Below are positions 28,087-38,829 of a DNA stretch of 64,000 nucleotides, piece after piece. How positions within the stretch are numbered: position 1 is the stretch's first letter; the number at the start of each line of letters is the position of its first letter. The stretch is taken from assembly GCA_031264145.1 (NCBI GenBank), contig JAISEK010000089.1, positions 1-64,000 of the forward strand. Direction: 5' to 3'. Both the position numbers and the translations under genes were made by a program. The stretch is from Deltaproteobacteria bacterium (GTDB taxonomy: Bacteria; Desulfobacterota; Desulfarculia; Adiutricales; Adiutricaceae). The notes beneath the pieces are model-generated. The model was given only the letters and a program-made list of their open reading frames with translations. It was not told the origin of the DNA and searched no databases.

Positions 28087-29573
28087 CTCGCCGTGGCCAG
28101 AGGCCTGGGGGACGCCGGCCAGGAGGATGGACTCCCTGCCTCTTCCCCGAGCCGGCCAAGGCTGGCCTTGCCTCCGCCCATCCTGAGGCCAAATGCCCCC
28201 GCCGGCCCCCCACCCGTACGGTGCCCCAATCACCAATCCTTCTCCTTCCCGCGATGGTCGCCAAAAGCCATGAGGCCCAGGGCCATCAGACAGCATATAT
28301 ATCCAATATTATTACATTTAATTACCATACCGAACGAACGAAATGGCTCGCCAGATTTGCCAGCGATAGGCTTGAAGATATAGTAGCGTGACGTTGGCAA
28401 ATATGATAGGTACTAGACATGATATCAATCTAAAAATATAGCCTTTCTATCAGACATAAAAGTTTTAATAATCCAACAAGCTCTCCATTGCTCAGCCCAT
28501 CAGGATGCCAGCCCCTCATTGCCTGCCTCCATAGATCCATAGTCTTTAAAACAAGAAATAAATCATAAAACAAAATATAAATCAAAATATTTAATAAATA
28601 TATTAACTTATAGATATTAACTTAAAAAAACTAAAAATGAAAACATATATTTAATCCATACGAAGTCTGAACACCACTGGACGCTCCTCCTTCCTTGTCG
28701 GCACCTAGCGCTCCAAAACAGACATTGCTTTGTGCTATCAACTAGAGTATAATCGCCACGTGGTAGCTTTGGCCTCACCAAGGCAAATTGGAGGCCCATA
28801 CAGACTTAAACATAGCCATAATTTAACTCATGCCCAGGCCACCAAACATAATTTCGATAAATTATAAAAATGGGTCGTATTTTTATTTGAACATGATTTG
28901 AAAAATTGGCAATTGAAAAAACTTTGTTTGACCCAATATTTTCAAGATGTTATTTGGCCAAATGGGTTTTAAAACTCTGGTCTAGCTGTCATTTTAATAG
29001 CATTTTCTTTCATTCTTTAACATCAGCGATAGCATTCATTCAGCTACTTAACTTTGTCAAAAAATAATAAAAATATCTCCAAAGAAAAATATTTTTTTGT
29101 TCTGTCCCGTTTTGGTCGATAAAAATAAGTGTCACCAGAAAACCAGCCCTGTCCGGCGAACGGCCGGGTCCGGCTACCCGACCAGGGCACTTTTTGTTCC
29201 CCTGGTTACCAAGTGTCCCAGGATTCAGGCTTGCGGCCACCGGAGGGCAATGGCCCAAACTGGACGGGCCTATGAGGATATGGAAGATAGCACGTCCCCA
29301 GGAGCCAAGGAGGGTTTTTGGGGACGGCCTGACGCCTGGCCGGACAGCCATGGCAGGCCCAGTGGTGTGGGCTTGTCGCTGTTGCCTGGTCTACCATACT
29401 TAACTTATTTTTTTAGTGCCAACAGAATATATTTTTCATATATAACAATTTTTAGTCCATAAATATTATTATCAATTTATGAATATTTTATTCTAAGAGA
29501 TTACTATCTTTGCATTTTCATTACTCAATGATAATAGAATTATTATACTATAAATATATAATGAGTCTTGAAT
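28087..29573. other. 1.5-kb AT-rich spacer
   Basis: No supported gene. GC-rich islands at about 28100-28290 and 29130-29390 alternate with very AT-rich blocks (28540-28640, 28840-29100, 29400-29570). The right end is the promoter region of the signalling cluster. Confidence 0.5.
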
Positions 29574-30599
29574 ATGAAAAATATTCTTGTAATAGACGAT
29601 AACCTGGTGACCCTCCAGCAAATCAATTCACAGTTGGATAGAAACTACGAGGTTACCCTAGCCAAGTCTGGAATGCAGGCCCTGACGATCTGTTGCCAGA
29701 TCCAGCCGGATCTGATTCTTCTGGACCTGGACATGCCCGACATGGACGGCTTCGAGACCATGGCCATGGTCAAGAAGAACCTGGCCCTAAGACACATCCC
29801 CGTCATCTTTCTGACCTCGACCCACGACACCGATATAGAGGCCAAGGCTCTCAAGAACGGTGCCGTAGACTTCATCACCAAGCCGGCCGACACGGACATA
29901 CTGCTCCACCGCATCGAGGTACACCTGAATCTTTCCGCATATAACCGCCAACTTGAGGATATGGTTAGAGTACTTGAGGATAGTATCATAGCATCATTTT
30001 CTGACATGATCGAATATAGGGATGGAAACACCGGCGGCCATGTCGTAAGGACGGCACAGTTCGTCAATATTCTGGCCAAAGAACTAATGCGCCGGGAACA
30101 GTTCAGGAACGAGCTCAATGACTTCACCGCCGGCATGATGACCAGAGCCGCGCCGCTCCATGACGTGGGCAAGATCCGCATCAGCGATCTCATTCTCCTC
30201 AAACCGGGCATGCTAAACGACGATGAGTTCCAAATCATGAAGACGCACACGATACTCGGGGCCGAGATGCTCAGAAGCATCTTCTCGAAGGTCCCGAGCC
30301 AGCCATACCATGAGATGGCCGTACTGATTGCCGAGTGCCACCATGAGCGTTGGGACGGAAAGGGCTATCCCAATAAACTCAAGGGCGAGGATATCCCCCT
30401 TTGCGCCAGGATCATGTCCATAGCCGACGTCTATGACGCCCTGGTGGACGTGAGGATCTACAAGCGGCCCATGAGCCATGCCGACGCCTGCCGTGTAATC
30501 ATCTCGGAGAAAAACAACATGTTTGACCATCGGATAGTCGAGGCATTTGAGGCGGCGCATGAGAGGTTCGCCGAGATAAGGGGCCTCCCGGTCACCTGA
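29574..30599 (+). CDS. Response regulator with HD-GYP phosphodiesterase domain
   Basis: A 341-residue two-domain protein (from ATG 29574). The receiver (about 1-120) has the acidic pair IDD and phosphoacceptor Asp51 in LLDLDMPD. A linker helix leads to an HD-GYP domain with HDVGK (HD at about 196-197) and HHERWDGKGYP (about 256-266), both complete. HD-GYP enzymes hydrolyse cyclic-di-GMP. The nearby hybrid kinase with Hpt domain is the obvious phosphodonor. A TTG at 29568 is an alternative start; no clear ribosome binding site is present for either. It opens the signalling block. Confidence 0.92.
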   Translation: MKNILVIDDNLVTLQQINSQLDRNYEVTLAKSGMQALTICCQIQPDLILLDLDMPDMDGFETMAMVKKNLALRHIPVIFLTSTHDTDIEAKALKNGAVDFITKPADTDILLHRIEVHLNLSAYNRQLEDMVRVLEDSIIASFSDMIEYRDGNTGGHVVRTAQFVNILAKELMRREQFRNELNDFTAGMMTRAAPLHDVGKIRISDLILLKPGMLNDDEFQIMKTHTILGAEMLRSIFSKVPSQPYHEMAVLIAECHHERWDGKGYPNKLKGEDIPLCARIMSIADVYDALVDVRIYKRPMSHADACRVIISEKNNMFDHRIVEAFEAAHERFAEIRGLPVT

Positions 30600-30690
30600 C
30601 AGCGCCACCAGGGGCTCCACCACATGGATCCATGATTTAAAAGCCTGGGCCATATCCAGGACTGTTCCCCCAAGCCCAAGGACCAAGGCC

Positions 30691-31851
30691 ATGCCCAGAA
30701 CGCTAATAGCCCAAACCAACGAGGTGGACGAGGCCGATTTGGCCATGATCGACCTCATGGCCCAGCTGGATCTGGACAATAACCTGTTGGCCAACTCGGT
30801 GGGCCTGCTTTTCGGGGACCTTGACCAGTTCCACCCGGATCTCCTGTCCGCCCTAAGCAGCAGGCTCCCCTTCGACCTGATTGGCATAAACTCCTCACTG
30901 AGTTCCGGCCCATCGCAAAAGGAGGACTATTACCTCCTGAACCTGATGGTCCTGACCTCCGACGACCTGAACATCATGGCCGCCCTGTCGGAGGACATCG
31001 GCCAGGCCGGGCTTGACTCCATAGATGCCCTTTACCGGGATCTGGCCTCAAGGATGACCGGGCGGCCAAAGCTAATCCTGATGTTCGGGTCAAGGCAGAG
31101 CGGCAATTTCCGGGCTGGCAGGGCGGTCAGCAGATTGGACGCCATCTCGGGCGGGACCCCCATATTCGGCTGCCTGTCCGGTGATTTTGACTCCATAGAC
31201 TCCAAGGGCTTTTTGGTCCACAACGGGCAGAAATACATGGACCGATTTGCCATCGTTATGATTGACGGGCCGATCAAGCCAAAGTTCTCCATCTTCAGGG
31301 TGCCCGAGAACAAAAGGCTCAAGCACAAGGCCATCATCACTTCCTGCTCCGGCAACCTGATTAAGGAAATAAACGGCCTACCAGCCCTGGACTATCTGTC
31401 AGGCCTGGGGTTCATAATAGACCAGAAGGTCGGCTTTTCGGCCACCATTCCCATGATCGTCGAAAACCATCAGGCCGATTTTTGGTCGCCGATGGTCCTC
31501 GTCTCCCGGACCGACTGCAACTATGTGGTCTGCTCCCAGGACGTTGAGGTGAACTCGACCCTGGGGCTCGGCGGCCTGGACGAGACCGATGTCCTAAAGA
31601 GTGCCGGGGAGTTGGCGGATGAGCTGAAATGGGAGCAATTCGGCTTTTGCCTCATCCACTCTTGCCAGGCCCGCCACCTCTCCCTGGGCTTGGACTATCT
31701 GGGCGAGATCGAGCGCATGCGCTCCAGCCTGAGCGATCTGCTGCCCTACACCCTCAGCTACACCGGCGGGGAGATCTGCCCCTGCCCAGACAAGCGCAAC
31801 AAACTGACCAACAGTTATCACAGCATGTCCCTGTCCTGCTTGCGGTTCTGA
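30691..31851 (+). CDS. FIST-domain sensory protein
   Basis: A 386-residue cytoplasmic protein with FIST N (about 30-225; VGLLFGD, PIFGCLSGDF) and FIST C (about 230-370; PALDYLSGLG, CQARHLSLG) regions. FIST domains are thought to bind small ligands such as amino acids and often sit beside signalling genes. The end SYTGGEICPCPDKRNKLTNSYHSMS matches the family's usual GEI-containing close. It lies 91 bases after the HD-GYP gene and 73 bases before the hybrid kinase on the same strand, so a common regulatory role is likely. Ligand unknown. Confidence 0.85.
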   Translation: MPRTLIAQTNEVDEADLAMIDLMAQLDLDNNLLANSVGLLFGDLDQFHPDLLSALSSRLPFDLIGINSSLSSGPSQKEDYYLLNLMVLTSDDLNIMAALSEDIGQAGLDSIDALYRDLASRMTGRPKLILMFGSRQSGNFRAGRAVSRLDAISGGTPIFGCLSGDFDSIDSKGFLVHNGQKYMDRFAIVMIDGPIKPKFSIFRVPENKRLKHKAIITSCSGNLIKEINGLPALDYLSGLGFIIDQKVGFSATIPMIVENHQADFWSPMVLVSRTDCNYVVCSQDVEVNSTLGLGGLDETDVLKSAGELADELKWEQFGFCLIHSCQARHLSLGLDYLGEIERMRSSLSDLLPYTLSYTGGEICPCPDKRNKLTNSYHSMSLSCLRF

Positions 31852-31924
31852 GCCTCTCGCCACCGCATCTCCAGCTCGCCGAGGACCAGGGCGGCCGAGA
31901 GCCAACAATTTTGAGGATCGAACA

Positions 31925-34453
31925 TTGACCAACCCAGAATATTCGCCAACCTCGGATCAATGCCTGGCCCTCGAGCTTGAACTGCGACGGCTCCGTAGGG
32001 AGTATAAGAAAATAAACAGGCAATACAAGTTCCTGCAGAAGCTCATGGCCAGGACCAAGGAGGCCACGGCCAACAACATGAACCTGTCCATGGTCATCTC
32101 GGCCGAGAAGACGAGCCGGGAGATCTTCCTCGACCTGATTCTGCAGAACAGCCCCAACATCATTTTGGTCTTCGATGGCTCCAACCGCCTCCTTTACGGG
32201 ACCAACATTCTTCTGAAGCTCCTAGACATTCCCCATATGGGACTAATCACCGGCCGGACCCTGAGGGAGCTTTTCCACAGGCTCCTTTCCAAACAGGACA
32301 TGGACTCATTCGAGGAGGCCTTCGGCGTGGCCGTCGATGGCAAGACGCCGGCCATTCTGGAGCTGACCATCGACTTCGCTCCCTCCCAGAACTTGCCCAG
32401 ATCCTTCATCATCAGGATTACTCCCCTGATCGACCCCGACATCAGGACCTCTGGGACCCTGATGCTCTTCCATGACCAGACGGAGATGGTCGAGACCAGC
32501 AAGGCCAGGGCCTCCTCCGAGGCCAAGAGCTCATTTTTGGCCAAGATGAGCCACGAGATCAGGACCCCACTCAACAGCATCATGGGTCTGAGCAAGGTCG
32601 AGCTCCAAAGCGACCTCCCCGAGCGCACCAGGGACAACCTGGCCAAGATCAACGCCGCAGGGGGGACGCTTCTTTCGATCATCAACGACATCCTGGACCT
32701 CTCCAAGGTCGAGATCGGCCAGTTCACCCTATACCCGGTCCCATACAGCTTCGCCAACCTGGTAAGCGACACCGTTAGCCTCAACATCGTCAACATCGGC
32801 ACCAAGCCCATCAAATTCCTGCTGGAGATCGACGAGGACGTCCCGTCCATGTTTTTCGGAGACGAGCTCAGGGTCAAGCAGATACTCAATAACCTCCTGT
32901 CAAATGCCTTCAAGTACACTGAGATGGGTCAGGTGAAGCTGACCATCGACTGCGAGAAGGAGGATGACTTCGGCTGGCTATCTATGACCGTCTCCGACAC
33001 CGGCCGGGGCATCAAGCCGGAGGACGTCGACCGCATCTTCGGGATCTACAACCAGGCGGAAAAGGACGGCCAGAGGGCCATAGAGGGCACGGGCCTGGGC
33101 CTTTCGATCTGCAAGGATCTGGTCGAGCTCATGCAGGGGACCATCCTGGTCGAAAGCGAGCACGGATCCGGCAGCACCTTCAAGGCCTTTATCCGCCAGC
33201 AGATAATCGACGAGACCCCGATCGGGCACCAGGTGGTCTCCAACCTCCAGAACTACGAGTTTTTGAGCCGGAAGAGGATCGAGGAACTGCCATTCACGCG
33301 CTTCTTCATGCCCAACGTCAAAGTCCTGGTAGTCGATGACGTCCAGACCAACCTGGACGTTGCCCAGGCCCTGATGGAGCCCTACGGCTTCACCATCGAC
33401 TGCGTGAGCAGCGGACAACAGGCCCTGGCCCTGCTAAAAAGCGGTTCCGAGGAATACGATTGCATTTTCATGGACCACATGATGCCTGACATGAACGGGC
33501 TGGAGGTCGTCAAGGCCATCCGGGAGCAGATTGACACCGAGTACGCCCGGACCGTCCCCATCATCGCCATGACAGCCAATGCCCTGGTCGAAAGCGAGAA
33601 GCTTTTCCTGAACAGCGGTTTCCAGGCCTACCTGTCGAAACCCATCGACCTTGGGAAGCTCCACGCCATCGTCACGAACTGGATCAAGGACCGCCTCCCC
33701 GATGTCCCCACGGCGGACGAGCGCATCCACGCGGGGGGAGACCGCGCCGGCCAAGGGCCAGGCCACAAGGGGGCCAAACAGCCGGTTCCCGGCCTAAACG
33801 GGAGCGAGACAGTGGACGACCAGGACATCAGGACAAGACTGGCCACCTACTACATCGACGGGCTGGACTTGGTCAAGGGCCTGGCCCGCTACGAAAACAA
33901 GTCCTCAATATATGTGCCCTTGCTCAAATCGTTCGTCCGCCACTCCCCGGTCATGCTCGAGGAGCTTCGGAACCCGACCGCCGAGACCCTGGGCAACTAC
34001 GCCATCAAGGTCCACGGCTTCAAGGGCGCCGGGGCCGGCATCTGCGCCGACAAGGTATCCGGTTTGGCCCTTGCCCTGGAGATGGCCGCCAAGAAGCCGG
34101 ATCTCCAGGCCGTTCTGGACAGGAACGACGAGTTCATCGCCGCCGCCGAGACCCTCATAAGGGAATTGGCCATCCTCCTGAGAAGCTTCCCCGCTGACCC
34201 GGTCGAGGACACCAGGGAGGTCAGGCCATGCCCGGACATAAACGTCCTGGCGAGCCTCGTCGCAGCCTGCCAGGCGTTCAAAAACTCGGAAATACAGAAA
34301 AATCTTAAAAACCTCGAGAACTTCGAGTACCAGGAGGACGGCGAGCTGGTTGACTGGGTGAGGGACCAGGCCGACAACATTGAGTACGAGGCCATCGTCG
34401 AGCGCCTGGAGACATACATCGCCGAACGCGGCAAGCCAACGAGCCCTGCCTAG
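31925..34453 (+). CDS. Hybrid sensor histidine kinase with receiver and Hpt domains
   Basis: An 842-residue soluble phosphorelay protein. Order: coiled coil (about 15-65), PAS-like domain (about 70-190), HisKA with phospho-His210 in MSHEIRTPLNS, HATPase with N-box NNLLSNAFKYTE, DTGRGI and GTGLGLS, then a receiver (about 464-585, Asp517 in FMDHMMPDM), and an Hpt domain with His697 in VHGFKGAGAG. No membrane segment is seen, so it senses a cytoplasmic signal, perhaps through FIST or the iron-sulfur protein. The start is TTG at 31925 with GAGG 8 bases upstream. The internal Hpt suggests output to the HD-GYP receiver. Confidence 0.93.
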   Translation: MTNPEYSPTSDQCLALELELRRLRREYKKINRQYKFLQKLMARTKEATANNMNLSMVISAEKTSREIFLDLILQNSPNIILVFDGSNRLLYGTNILLKLLDIPHMGLITGRTLRELFHRLLSKQDMDSFEEAFGVAVDGKTPAILELTIDFAPSQNLPRSFIIRITPLIDPDIRTSGTLMLFHDQTEMVETSKARASSEAKSSFLAKMSHEIRTPLNSIMGLSKVELQSDLPERTRDNLAKINAAGGTLLSIINDILDLSKVEIGQFTLYPVPYSFANLVSDTVSLNIVNIGTKPIKFLLEIDEDVPSMFFGDELRVKQILNNLLSNAFKYTEMGQVKLTIDCEKEDDFGWLSMTVSDTGRGIKPEDVDRIFGIYNQAEKDGQRAIEGTGLGLSICKDLVELMQGTILVESEHGSGSTFKAFIRQQIIDETPIGHQVVSNLQNYEFLSRKRIEELPFTRFFMPNVKVLVVDDVQTNLDVAQALMEPYGFTIDCVSSGQQALALLKSGSEEYDCIFMDHMMPDMNGLEVVKAIREQIDTEYARTVPIIAMTANALVESEKLFLNSGFQAYLSKPIDLGKLHAIVTNWIKDRLPDVPTADERIHAGGDRAGQGPGHKGAKQPVPGLNGSETVDDQDIRTRLATYYIDGLDLVKGLARYENKSSIYVPLLKSFVRHSPVMLEELRNPTAETLGNYAIKVHGFKGAGAGICADKVSGLALALEMAAKKPDLQAVLDRNDEFIAAAETLIRELAILLRSFPADPVEDTREVRPCPDINVLASLVAACQAFKNSEIQKNLKNLENFEYQEDGELVDWVRDQADNIEYEAIVERLETYIAERGKPTSPA

Positions 34454-34843
34454 CCGAACTTACGCAGTAATGGCCGGACATGGTCACAGCCTTAGCCACC
34501 AAGTCCAGCGGCAGGGGCCGCTCCCAGCGGGCCATCCCTGGACAAGCTCGGGGGGACCTAAGGGCCGCATGGGCCGCATCAGAAGATGCCGTTCGGCACC
34601 AGACTGCCGGATATGCCCAAAGCCGTGCGGGGGGCTAATTTTTGGGGCACATACTGGTGCATGGCAGCCGTGAGGACAAGCCTATGCCAGATATCAGGGC
34701 TAAGGATGGTTTGACATCTGCCCAGCTCGAAAACCGCCGCCTGCCTCGACGGCCCATGGTCACGCATCGCGGCTTTTCAACCAAATGCAGGGAAGACGGG
34801 CAACTCTCCCCCGGGGCAAAGCCAGGGGCCCATTGGCTGGAAG
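34454..34843. other. 390-base gap inside the signalling block
   Basis: GC-moderate sequence between the hybrid kinase and the hydrogenase-like sensor gene. No gene or strong terminator was recognised; a separate promoter for the downstream gene could lie here. Confidence 0.4.
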
Positions 34844-36661
34844 ATGATGAACGAACTGATCAAGACCAATATCCACGCCTGCGTCGGCTGCAACAAGTGC
34901 ATGCGCATCTGTCCAGTCGAAACGGCCAACGTGGCTTTCCTTGATCGCCATGGCCGGATCAAGATCCGCACCGACAGGACAAAGTGCCTGGCCTGCGGAG
35001 CCTGCATCACCGTCTGCCACCGCCGGGCCCGCTATTACGCCGACGACACCGCCAGGCTTTTCTCCGATCTTGAAAGCGGCCAGAAGGTTTCCATCCTGAT
35101 CTCGCCCTCGGTGAGGACCAACTTCCCTGACTACAGGAACATCATCCATTACCTCAGGGGCATGGGGGCCAGCAAGATCTTCGACGTCTCAGCCGGCATC
35201 GACATCTACGTCTGGGCGCACCTCAGGCACCTGGAAAAGTTCAGCCCCTTCACAATGATCACCACCTACTGCCCAGTTCTCATCGCCTACTGCGAGCTGC
35301 ACCGCCCGGAGCTACTGCCCAGGCTCTCGCCCATCAGGAGCCCTTCGTCCGTCCTGGCCATATTTTTGAAGGACTATCTGAAAATCGATGACGATCTGGC
35401 CGTACTCTCGCCGTGCCTATGCCAAAAGACTGAGTTCGACCCGACCAAGGAGAACCTCAAATACAGCCTTACCTTCGCCAGGCTCAGGGAGCATATCCTC
35501 AAGACCAACCCCAATGGCCTGCCGCCCGGAGAGTCCGATTTCGATCGGCCGGACATGTCCATCGGGGCTGGCTCGGCCCTCCATGACAGCTTTCGCCGCA
35601 ATCTCACGTTCTTTACCGGCAACTCCTTGAGAATAGACAGTGCCAGCGGCCAGAAGGTCTTCCACCTCCTGGACGTCTACGCCGCCTCCGATCCCGGCGA
35701 CGTGCCCCAGATTCTCGATCTGGTCAGCTGCGACATGGGCTGCAGCCTGGGACCGGGGCGCATCCCCGATCTCAACCGCTTCAACATCAACAACATCGTC
35801 TACCGCAACTCCAAGCTTTTCTATACCCCAGAGACCAAGGAGAAGTACCTGGACCTGCATGCCGAGTTTGACCGGAAGCTCGACCTGGGCAGCTTCTACC
35901 AGCAGTACATCCCGACGTCCCTGGTCCAGGACTACGTGGCCGAGGAACGCATCGAGCAGGCTTTCCTGTCAATGGGCAAGAGGACCGTGGCCCAGAGGAC
36001 CATAGACTGCTACGCCTGCGGGGCGGCAACGTGCCGGGAGATGGCCATCAGGATCGCCCTTGGGGTCAACATCCCCAACAACTGCACCGTTCTGGCCAAG
36101 GAAACCATCGCTGCCTCCAACAAGAGGTTCAACGATTACCTGCAGCTGATTCGGGTCATGGGCGAATACATGCTGGCCAGCGGCCAGCACGACAAGAAGG
36201 ACAGCATCGAGAATTCTCTGATGGCCCTGTGCTCAGCCCTCAACGCCTCCAGGGCCTCCATATGGAAGACCTCCTACGACGAGCTCGAGCTCCCCAAGTG
36301 CGACATCCTCCTGTCGTTCCCCAGCATCAGACACTCCAGCCTGGGTCCCATGACCACCGAGAACATGCCTGGCTGGCTTGAGTCCCTCGGCGACGGTGAC
36401 CTCCTGATCAGGTCGGCCCAGTACATGTCGGTCAAGGAGAAGCAGTTCTTCACCGAGTCGGGCTTCGACAACCTCTGCTGCATACCGATCATGGCCGAGG
36501 GCGACTTCTGGGGTTTCCTGATGATGGTCCGCGGCCCCCGCAAGCCCTTCAGCCCCGAGGAGCTGAACATGATCGAGTCGGCCAGCTTTCTCATCATCTC
36601 CAACCTCATCTCATTCAACCCCTCAGAGACGCAGGATACCTGCCCCGACCAGACGGCCTGA
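34844..36661 (+). CDS. Sensory [FeFe]-hydrogenase-like iron-sulfur protein with GAF-like domain
   Basis: A 605-residue cytoplasmic protein. Two 4Fe-4S motifs open it (Cys13/16/19/23 and Cys48/51/54/58). Residues about 80-370 follow the [FeFe]-hydrogenase large-subunit layout with the four H-cluster cysteines kept: TTYCP (Cys143), SPCLCQKTE (Cys191), and SCDMGC (Cys296, Cys300). The proton-relay Cys next to the first is Tyr142, and the Lys of the second motif is Gln194. A PF04060-type Fe-S motif (Cys389/392/397/414) and a GAF-like C-terminus (about 450-595) follow. This layout fits putative sensory rather than catalytic hydrogenases. Start ATG 34844 (a second ATG follows directly) has GGAAG close upstream. 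Confidence 0.85.
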   Translation: MMNELIKTNIHACVGCNKCMRICPVETANVAFLDRHGRIKIRTDRTKCLACGACITVCHRRARYYADDTARLFSDLESGQKVSILISPSVRTNFPDYRNIIHYLRGMGASKIFDVSAGIDIYVWAHLRHLEKFSPFTMITTYCPVLIAYCELHRPELLPRLSPIRSPSSVLAIFLKDYLKIDDDLAVLSPCLCQKTEFDPTKENLKYSLTFARLREHILKTNPNGLPPGESDFDRPDMSIGAGSALHDSFRRNLTFFTGNSLRIDSASGQKVFHLLDVYAASDPGDVPQILDLVSCDMGCSLGPGRIPDLNRFNINNIVYRNSKLFYTPETKEKYLDLHAEFDRKLDLGSFYQQYIPTSLVQDYVAEERIEQAFLSMGKRTVAQRTIDCYACGAATCREMAIRIALGVNIPNNCTVLAKETIAASNKRFNDYLQLIRVMGEYMLASGQHDKKDSIENSLMALCSALNASRASIWKTSYDELELPKCDILLSFPSIRHSSLGPMTTENMPGWLESLGDGDLLIRSAQYMSVKEKQFFTESGFDNLCCIPIMAEGDFWGFLMMVRGPRKPFSPEELNMIESASFLIISNLISFNPSETQDTCPDQTA

Positions 36662-36834: not shown

Positions 36835-37431
<597 letters not shown>

Positions 37432-37929: not shown

Positions 37930-38829
37930 ATGGCTAGCAAATTTATATGGCACCCGATATCCGATCTTCTTCCTGAATATGAGCTTTGGAGAGACGAACG
38001 CCTCACGTGCCTGTCACTTGAGTGGCAAAAAAAGAAAAATGAGCTGGACGGCGATTGCTTGAAGGAATATGTGGAGCGACTGGAACGGGAATGGGCCATC
38101 GAGACGGGCCAGATTGAAGGGCTGTATTCCTTGGACAGGGGTCTGACGGAGACTCTGATTGAGCATGGCCTCGACGCGATCGACCTTCCACACTATGCCT
38201 CGACGTCGCCCCACAAGACACAAAGGCTCATAATGCGGCAAAAGGAGGTGGTTGATGGCCTTTTTTCCTTCGTCAAGCAGGAACAGTCCCTGTCCAAGCA
38301 CTATATCCGCGCCATGCACGCCGAACTGACCAGGGAGCAGGACCACACAGAAGCCGTGGACCATCTTGGCCGGTATGTCCAGACTCCGCTGCTCAAGGGG
38401 TCTTGGAAGATTCATCCGAACAATCCAGCAAGACCCGACGGATCGATCCATGAGTACTGCCCACCCGAGCATGTGGAGACAGAGATGGACAACCTCATCA
38501 AATGGCACGGCGAACATAAATGGAAAAAAGTCGCTCCCGAGATGGAGGCTGCCTGGCTTCACCACCGTTTCAGCCAGATCCACCCCTTCCAGGACGGCAA
38601 CGGGAGGATTGCCAGGGCCCTGGCGACCCTTGTCTTCCTTCAGGCCGGCTGGCTGCCGCTGGTGGTGGCTTCCTCCCAAAGAAAAGACTACATAGACTGT
38701 CTTGAGCAGGCCGACAGCGGCCAGCTCATGCCCCTGGCCATTTTTTTCGCCGACAAGGCCCAGGATAGGCTGGCAGAAGCCCTGAGGCTGACCTCCAGGA
38801 GGTCGCCTGGCGGAGAATCATCGGGGTGA
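37930..38829 (+). CDS. Fic-family AMPylator, class II
   Basis: A 299-residue Fic protein predicted to transfer AMP, or another nucleotide part, to a hydroxyl side chain of a target protein. The catalytic motif HPFQDGNGRIAR at residues 218-229 is complete. An inhibitory helix motif TGQIEG (Thr59 to Gly64, matching [S/T]xxxE[G/N]) lies N-terminal to the Fic core, which marks a self-inhibited class II enzyme. A Fic_N-like helical region forms the first half. It stands alone between AT-rich and eroded DNA, and no antitoxin gene is needed because inhibition is built in. The target is unknown. Confidence 0.9.
   Translation: MASKFIWHPISDLLPEYELWRDERLTCLSLEWQKKKNELDGDCLKEYVERLEREWAIETGQIEGLYSLDRGLTETLIEHGLDAIDLPHYASTSPHKTQRLIMRQKEVVDGLFSFVKQEQSLSKHYIRAMHAELTREQDHTEAVDHLGRYVQTPLLKGSWKIHPNNPARPDGSIHEYCPPEHVETEMDNLIKWHGEHKWKKVAPEMEAAWLHHRFSQIHPFQDGNGRIARALATLVFLQAGWLPLVVASSQRKDYIDCLEQADSGQLMPLAIFFADKAQDRLAEALRLTSRRSPGGESSG

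What the first reader, a model, noticed from the sequence alone, without database searches (positions are those of the whole stretch)
29574..36661. Possible H2/redox-to-cyclic-di-GMP signalling module
Four same-strand genes combine an iron-sulfur/hydrogenase-like sensor, a FIST ligand sensor, a soluble hybrid kinase with its own receiver and Hpt, and a receiver-HD-GYP phosphodiesterase. No catalytic hydrogenase subunits or maturases are nearby. The set could pass a cytoplasmic redox or H2 signal through a phosphorelay to lower cyclic-di-GMP. The domain calls are read directly; the pathway is inference.
Basis: partly seen in the sequence, partly recalled or inferred. Interest (0 to 1): 0.68.

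Follow-up and report, generated by a model that had tools for sequence, protein, structure and literature searches.

The report
Ex-hydrogenase sensor in cyclic-di-GMP phosphorelay
A gut bacterium carries a four-gene signalling cassette in which a protein descended from a hydrogen sensor, but probably no longer able to bind hydrogen, is teamed with a FIST sensor, a phosphorelay kinase and an enzyme that should break down cyclic-di-GMP; it resembles the known nitric-oxide system NosR-NosP-NosK with one extra sensor.

Summary
The four genes are real, intact and in the stated order. The module is more than chance: REC-HD-GYP, FIST, hybrid kinase and hydrogenase-like gene (HYD) keep that order in seven relatives at down to about 35% identity. 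In several they sit exactly between obgE and purH; sister genera lacking the genes have obgE beside purH. In two other genomes, sampled in the phylum of an Oscillospiraceae MAG, a HYD domain is fused to a hybrid kinase, and in one a REC-HD-GYP gene lies 15 bp upstream; these fusions are the closest relatives of the window HYD. So the kinase link is well supported. The hydrogen part is not: the four cubane cysteines are invariant, but the lysine that holds the [2Fe] unit is kept in 3 of 15 family members versus 23 of 23 relatives. Genes 1-3 repeat the published nosR-nosP-nosK order. Best reading: a NosRPK-like phosphorelay with an added Fe-S/GAF sensor derived from a sensory [FeFe]-hydrogenase, sensing redox state or a reactive gas rather than H2, and tuning cyclic-di-GMP. 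Signal, phosphotransfer and hydrolysis are inferred. New variant of a known kind.

The parts
29574..30599 (+). REC-HD-GYP response regulator, predicted cyclic-di-GMP phosphodiesterase (phospho-acceptor D51)
   Evidence: Pfam Response_reg 88 bits, HD_5 91 bits; D51 and HHExxDGxGYP invariant in 8 orthologues
30691..31851 (+). FIST + FIST_C protein, soluble sensor of unknown ligand, NosP-like position
   Evidence: PF08495 51 bits, PF10442 32 bits, both over cut-off; NosP model NF041558 16.8 of 450 bits
31925..34453 (+). soluble hybrid kinase PAS-HisKA-HATPase-REC-Hpt
   Evidence: Pfam; H210, D517, H697 invariant in 12 orthologues; helical bundle 660-752 predicted
34844..36661 (+). HYD: 2x[4Fe-4S], [FeFe]-hydrogenase-like H-domain with decayed [2Fe] pocket, Cx2Cx4Cx16C cluster, GAF
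   Evidence: Pfam; cubane cysteines C143, C191, C296, C300 invariant; pocket lysine absent, Gln here
29401..29573 (+). AT-rich (17.9% GC) stretch just before the first gene, probable promoter region of the cassette
   Evidence: composition; promoter-like consensus at 29442-29469, a consensus match only
34454..34843 (+). 390-base gap between kinase and HYD; no + strand promoter- or terminator-like match found; the same junction is an ATGA overlap in L045

Best explanation
The four genes form one cytoplasmic phosphorelay cassette. Two soluble sensors, the FIST protein and the Fe-S/GAF protein HYD, modulate a soluble hybrid kinase. Phosphate passes H210 -> D517 -> H697 (Hpt) -> D51 of the REC-HD-GYP protein and changes its cyclic-di-GMP phosphodiesterase activity. 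HYD descends from a sensory [FeFe]-hydrogenase but has lost the pocket for the [2Fe] unit while keeping all cubane cysteines. It therefore most likely reports redox state or a cluster-reactive gas (NO, O2) through its [4Fe-4S] clusters, passing the change through a long helix into GAF and on to the kinase, rather than sensing H2. Shown by sequence: domains, intact catalytic residues, conserved cassette, HYD-kinase fusions elsewhere, pocket decay. Inferred: contacts between the proteins, phosphotransfer, sign of the output, and the signal.
For: Conserved order HD-GYP, FIST, HK, HYD in the window and seven relatives. All-or-none cassette between obgE and purH with an empty site in sister genera. 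Presence profile in 36 genomes of the family: 18 both HYD and core FIST, 3 FIST only, 0 HYD only, 15 neither. ATGA overlap of HK and HYD in L045 and of HD-GYP and FIST in L043. HYD-HK-REC-Hpt fusion with REC-HD-GYP 15 bp upstream in G346 and a second HYD-kinase fusion in G455; these are the sister group of the window HYD (support 92). Pocket lysine 3 of 15 versus 23 of 23, cubane cysteines 15 of 15. Published nosRPK operon has the same three-gene order and a FIST protein acting on the kinase. Genome has five strong GGDEF domains.
Against: All GAF-type carriers belong to one genome family and probably one gain; surrounding synteny is also partly conserved. L051 has HYD away from the kinase, and G011 has the triple without HYD. 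Hpt is below the Pfam cut-off. The second fusion, G455, has no recognised Hpt. Three of 15 family members still have a lysine near the pocket. The FIST ligand is unknown and NosP/NosR models are far below cut-off.
Confidence: 0.6

Rival explanations
1. True H2 sensor: HYD still assembles an H-cluster and reports H2 to the phosphorelay.
For: All four H-cluster cysteines are invariant; HydF and catalytic hydrogenases exist in the genome; kinase-fused cousins keep the pocket.
Against: Pocket lysine and AP[AS] proline lost in most family members including the window (Gln at the lysine position), yet kept in all 23 relatives.
Confidence: 0.15
2. NosRPK-like NO or haem system with HYD as a bystander: FIST alone controls the kinase, and HYD serves something else at the same locus.
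For: Triple without HYD exists in G011 (L093) and FIST-kinase pairs elsewhere; HYD stays next to purH even when the kinase is not adjacent (L051, L041).
Against: HYD never occurs without the core FIST in 36 genomes; HYD-kinase fusions are its closest relatives.
Confidence: 0.14
3. Inherited neighbourhood without functional link between the four genes.
For: All members belong to one family of genomes and the site is shared; the block was probably gained once.
Against: Gain or loss as a block at a clean site, overlapping genes, matched domain chemistry, and fusions in unrelated genomes.
Confidence: 0.07

Closest known systems
nosR-nosP-nosK nitric-oxide system (Burkholderia pseudomallei BPSS1648-1646, PMC12570481; NosP-NahK-NarR in Legionella, PMC8846402)
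   Same: Same gene order: REC-HD-GYP, stand-alone FIST protein, soluble histidine kinase
   Different: Extra HYD gene; kinase here is hybrid with REC and Hpt and has a PAS; HD-GYP motif intact, while B. pseudomallei NosR is degenerate; NosP and NosR models far below cut-off; haem binding untested
Sensory [FeFe]-hydrogenases, groups C and D (TmHydS, TamHydS) and HydDB groups C1 (kinase-linked) and C2 (chemotactic)
   Same: 2x[4Fe-4S], H-domain, C-terminal Cx2Cx4Cx16C cluster, signalling partner; M353 position is Ser/Thr as in group D
   Different: [2Fe] pocket lysine and proline lost; GAF instead of PAS or chemoreceptor domain; sits with FIST and HD-GYP genes
H-NOX-HnoK-HnoB system
   Same: Stand-alone gas sensor protein controls a kinase that phosphorylates a cyclic-di-GMP phosphodiesterase (PMC8846402)
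   Different: No H-NOX among the four genes; the sensors are FIST and an Fe-S protein
HYD-hybrid kinase fusion of an Oscillospiraceae MAG (L115:9764-13708)
   Same: Homologous input and kinase-REC-Hpt modules, REC-HD-GYP gene 15 bp upstream
   Different: One polypeptide, PAS instead of GAF, [2Fe] pocket lysine kept, no FIST hit in the locus held

Membership tests
NosR-NosP-NosK system | Adjacent genes for REC-HD-GYP (or other c-di-GMP output), FIST protein and soluble kinase | tested here: met
NosR-NosP-NosK system | Curated NosP and NosR family scores over cut-off | tested here: not met
   NosP 16.8 of 450 bits, NosR 157 of 400 bits
NosR-NosP-NosK system | FIST protein binds haem and senses NO | not testable with these tools
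   no FIST structure relative in PDB
Sensory [FeFe]-hydrogenase (group C/D) | Four cysteines that ligate the cubane and bridge to [2Fe] | tested here: met
   C143, C191, C296, C300 invariant
Sensory [FeFe]-hydrogenase (group C/D) | Residues that hold [2Fe] by H-bonds (K358 of CpI and the AP[AS] loop) | tested here: not met
   lysine 3 of 15, proline 7 of 15; all 23 relatives keep both
Sensory [FeFe]-hydrogenase (group C/D) | C-terminal Cx2Cx4Cx16C cluster | tested here: met
   C389, C392, C397, C414 invariant
Sensory [FeFe]-hydrogenase (group C/D) | H-cluster present and H2-responsive | not testable with these tools
   needs expression and spectroscopy
HD-GYP phosphodiesterase | HD and HHExxDGxGYP motifs | tested here: met
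   (H196 in 7 of 8, D197 and GYP in 8 of 8)
Hybrid kinase phosphorelay | HisKA His, REC Asp and Hpt His all present and conserved | tested here: met
   Hpt family score itself below cut-off

The most novel reading that the evidence does not exclude
A former H2 sensor has been stripped of its [2Fe] pocket and recruited as a second, Fe-S-based input into a NosRPK-type relay, so that one kinase integrates a FIST ligand and cellular redox state or NO to set cyclic-di-GMP in a gut-associated lineage.
Probability: 0.45. Interest if true: 0.65.

Novelty: new variant of a known kind. Interest (0 to 1): 0.52.

Why it matters
The role of sensory [FeFe]-hydrogenases is unproven and their partner proteins are mostly guessed. 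This cassette, with its kinase-fused cousins, gives a concrete partner (hybrid kinase, then HD-GYP) and a natural pair of sensors with and without the [2Fe] pocket, so it becomes testable which part of the H-domain carries the signal. It also ties FIST/NosP-type signalling to Fe-S sensing.

Tried and rejected
Chance or misread ORFs: rejected by Pfam and orthologues. Cyclic-di-GMP riboswitch or other known RNA in the AT-rich upstream region: no Rfam match in the window at gathering scores. Placing the FIST haem ligand by structure: no FIST relative in PDB. FIST relatives on plasmids, to find a named NosP: one weak Nostoc hit. Distance correlation between gene families: high for most pairs, including several with purH, so not informative. 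purH as a fifth member: rejected as housekeeping, present next to obgE without the cassette. Orthologue of the GAF form elsewhere in the phylum: none in 297 sampled genomes, the best outside the family being a chemoreceptor-fused relative. No paper was found that describes this four-gene set (open-licence library only).

Full report
1. What is there. The window lies on contig 115 of a 4.0 Mb draft genome. Contigs carrying the closest orthologues are titled 'MAG: Deltaproteobacteria bacterium', with bin names that I take, from memory and not from a test, to be termite-gut samples. The four ORFs are intact and on one strand: REC-HD-GYP 29574-30599, FIST 30691-31851, PAS-HisKA-HATPase-REC-Hpt 31925-34453, and HYD 34844-36661. 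HYD is 2x[4Fe-4S], H-domain, Cx2Cx4Cx16C cluster, long helix, GAF. The Hpt call is below the Pfam cut-off, but His697 is invariant in 12 orthologues and sits in a well-predicted helical bundle.

2. Is it a module? HYD orthologues occur in 18 of 36 sampled genomes of the same family, and all 18 also hold the core FIST protein (at least 200 bits). Three incomplete genomes have FIST only, none has HYD only, 15 have neither. In the window and seven relatives (L037, L038, L043, L044, L045, L049, L050) the order is HD-GYP, FIST, HK, HYD, purH; four more loci show FIST-HK-HYD, three of them followed by purH. In L043, L044, L045 and L049 the cassette lies between obgE and purH. In two genera that lack it, obgE and purH are direct neighbours (L105-L108). 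The four genes thus came or went as one block. In the window the obgE side is inverted. Stop and start codons overlap as ATGA between HK and HYD in L045 and between HD-GYP and FIST in L043. Exceptions: in L051 HYD stands away from FIST and kinase, in G015 it is separated from the kinase by at least 3 kb, and the triple without HYD exists in G011 (L093).

3. Evidence from outside the lineage. The genome behind L073 (titled Oscillospiraceae, handle G346) encodes a 1314-residue protein made of the HYD domain (residues 1-424), PAS domains, HisKA, HATPase, REC and Hpt, with a REC-HD-GYP gene ending 15 bp upstream and another downstream on the other strand. G455 holds a second HYD-kinase fusion, with two receivers and no recognised Hpt. 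In a tree of HYD core domains the window family is one clade (SH-aLRT 100), beside these kinase fusions (92). Other relatives are fused to chemoreceptor domains, to GGDEF (L139) or to a sigma-54 activator (L138); the last two were recognised from their C-terminal sequence, not by a Pfam scan. The HYD domain is therefore a portable sensory input, and its nearest cousins feed hybrid kinases.

4. What does HYD sense? The cubane cysteines C143, C191, C296 and C300 are invariant in 15 sequences. The lysine three residues after the L2 cysteine (K358 of the C. pasteurianum enzyme, which H-bonds a cyanide of [2Fe]; own knowledge) is present in 3 of 15 family members, and is Gln in the window protein. 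It is present in 23 of 23 relatives, including the catalytic and HydS-type paralogues of the same genomes and the kinase fusions. The proline of the AP[AS] loop shows the same pattern, 7 of 15 against all relatives. PMC10055695 states that residues which H-bond [2Fe] are conserved in sensory enzymes. Decay of this set argues against an H-cluster and so against H2. The remaining [4Fe-4S] clusters could respond to redox state, O2 or NO; PMC13104023 found the C-terminal cluster of a group D enzyme unresponsive to H2.

5. How it probably works. By analogy with nosRPK, where a FIST protein controls a soluble kinase that phosphorylates a REC-HD-GYP protein (PMC12570481; PMC8846402), FIST and HYD would both act on the kinase. 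Phosphate would pass H210, D517, H697 and then D51 of the HD-GYP protein. The HD-GYP motif is intact here, unlike that of B. pseudomallei NosR. The genome has five strong GGDEF domains, so cyclic-di-GMP signalling is likely present. Contacts, phosphotransfer, sign and ligand are inferred.

6. Place among known systems. It works like NosRPK but is not filed as NosP/NosR, because the curated models score far below cut-off. HYD works like a HydS input but fails the pocket criterion, so it is not filed as a sensory hydrogenase. HydDB already lists kinase-linked (C1) and chemotactic (C2) [FeFe] groups (PMC5037454). The new element is the combination, plus the pocket decay. No paper found in the open-licence library describes it.

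7. Limits. All carriers of the GAF form belong to one genome family and probably one gain. Housekeeping synteny around the site is also partly conserved. The kinase fusions come from two genomes. The sampled genomes are mostly draft MAGs, so absence is uncertain. AF2 models are of moderate confidence.

Noticed in passing
36835-37431: purH here encodes only the MGS/IMP cyclohydrolase part (198 aa), no AICAR formyltransferase domain; the same short form is found across the class and lies next to HYD in nearly every carrier locus with that flank.
   Followed up: partly
28291-29100 and 29401-29573: Very AT-rich non-coding stretches (33.5% and 17.9% GC against 59% for the window) upstream of the cassette, with a surplus of promoter-like matches; no Rfam family.
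   Followed up: partly
L139:7496-9256 and L138:8876-11122: Hydrogenase-like sensory domains with the pocket lysine kept, apparently fused to a GGDEF domain and to a sigma-54 activator: possible direct links from an H2-type sensor to cyclic-di-GMP and to transcription.
   Followed up: no
L001 and L004 (G000 contig 33): In the same genome a HydS-type protein with intact pocket lies right beside a catalytic-type [FeFe]-hydrogenase gene; a further divergent paralogue is on contig 162 (L003).
   Followed up: partly
L048, L050, L087, L088, L090, L092: Some relatives carry two FIST genes in or near the cassette, suggesting duplicated inputs.
   Followed up: no
L093:4121-8938: HD-GYP, FIST, hybrid kinase triple without the hydrogenase-like gene in a sister genus: a plain NosRPK-like form.
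   Followed up: no
37930-38829: A Fic/DOC family protein gene follows purH in the window.
   Followed up: no
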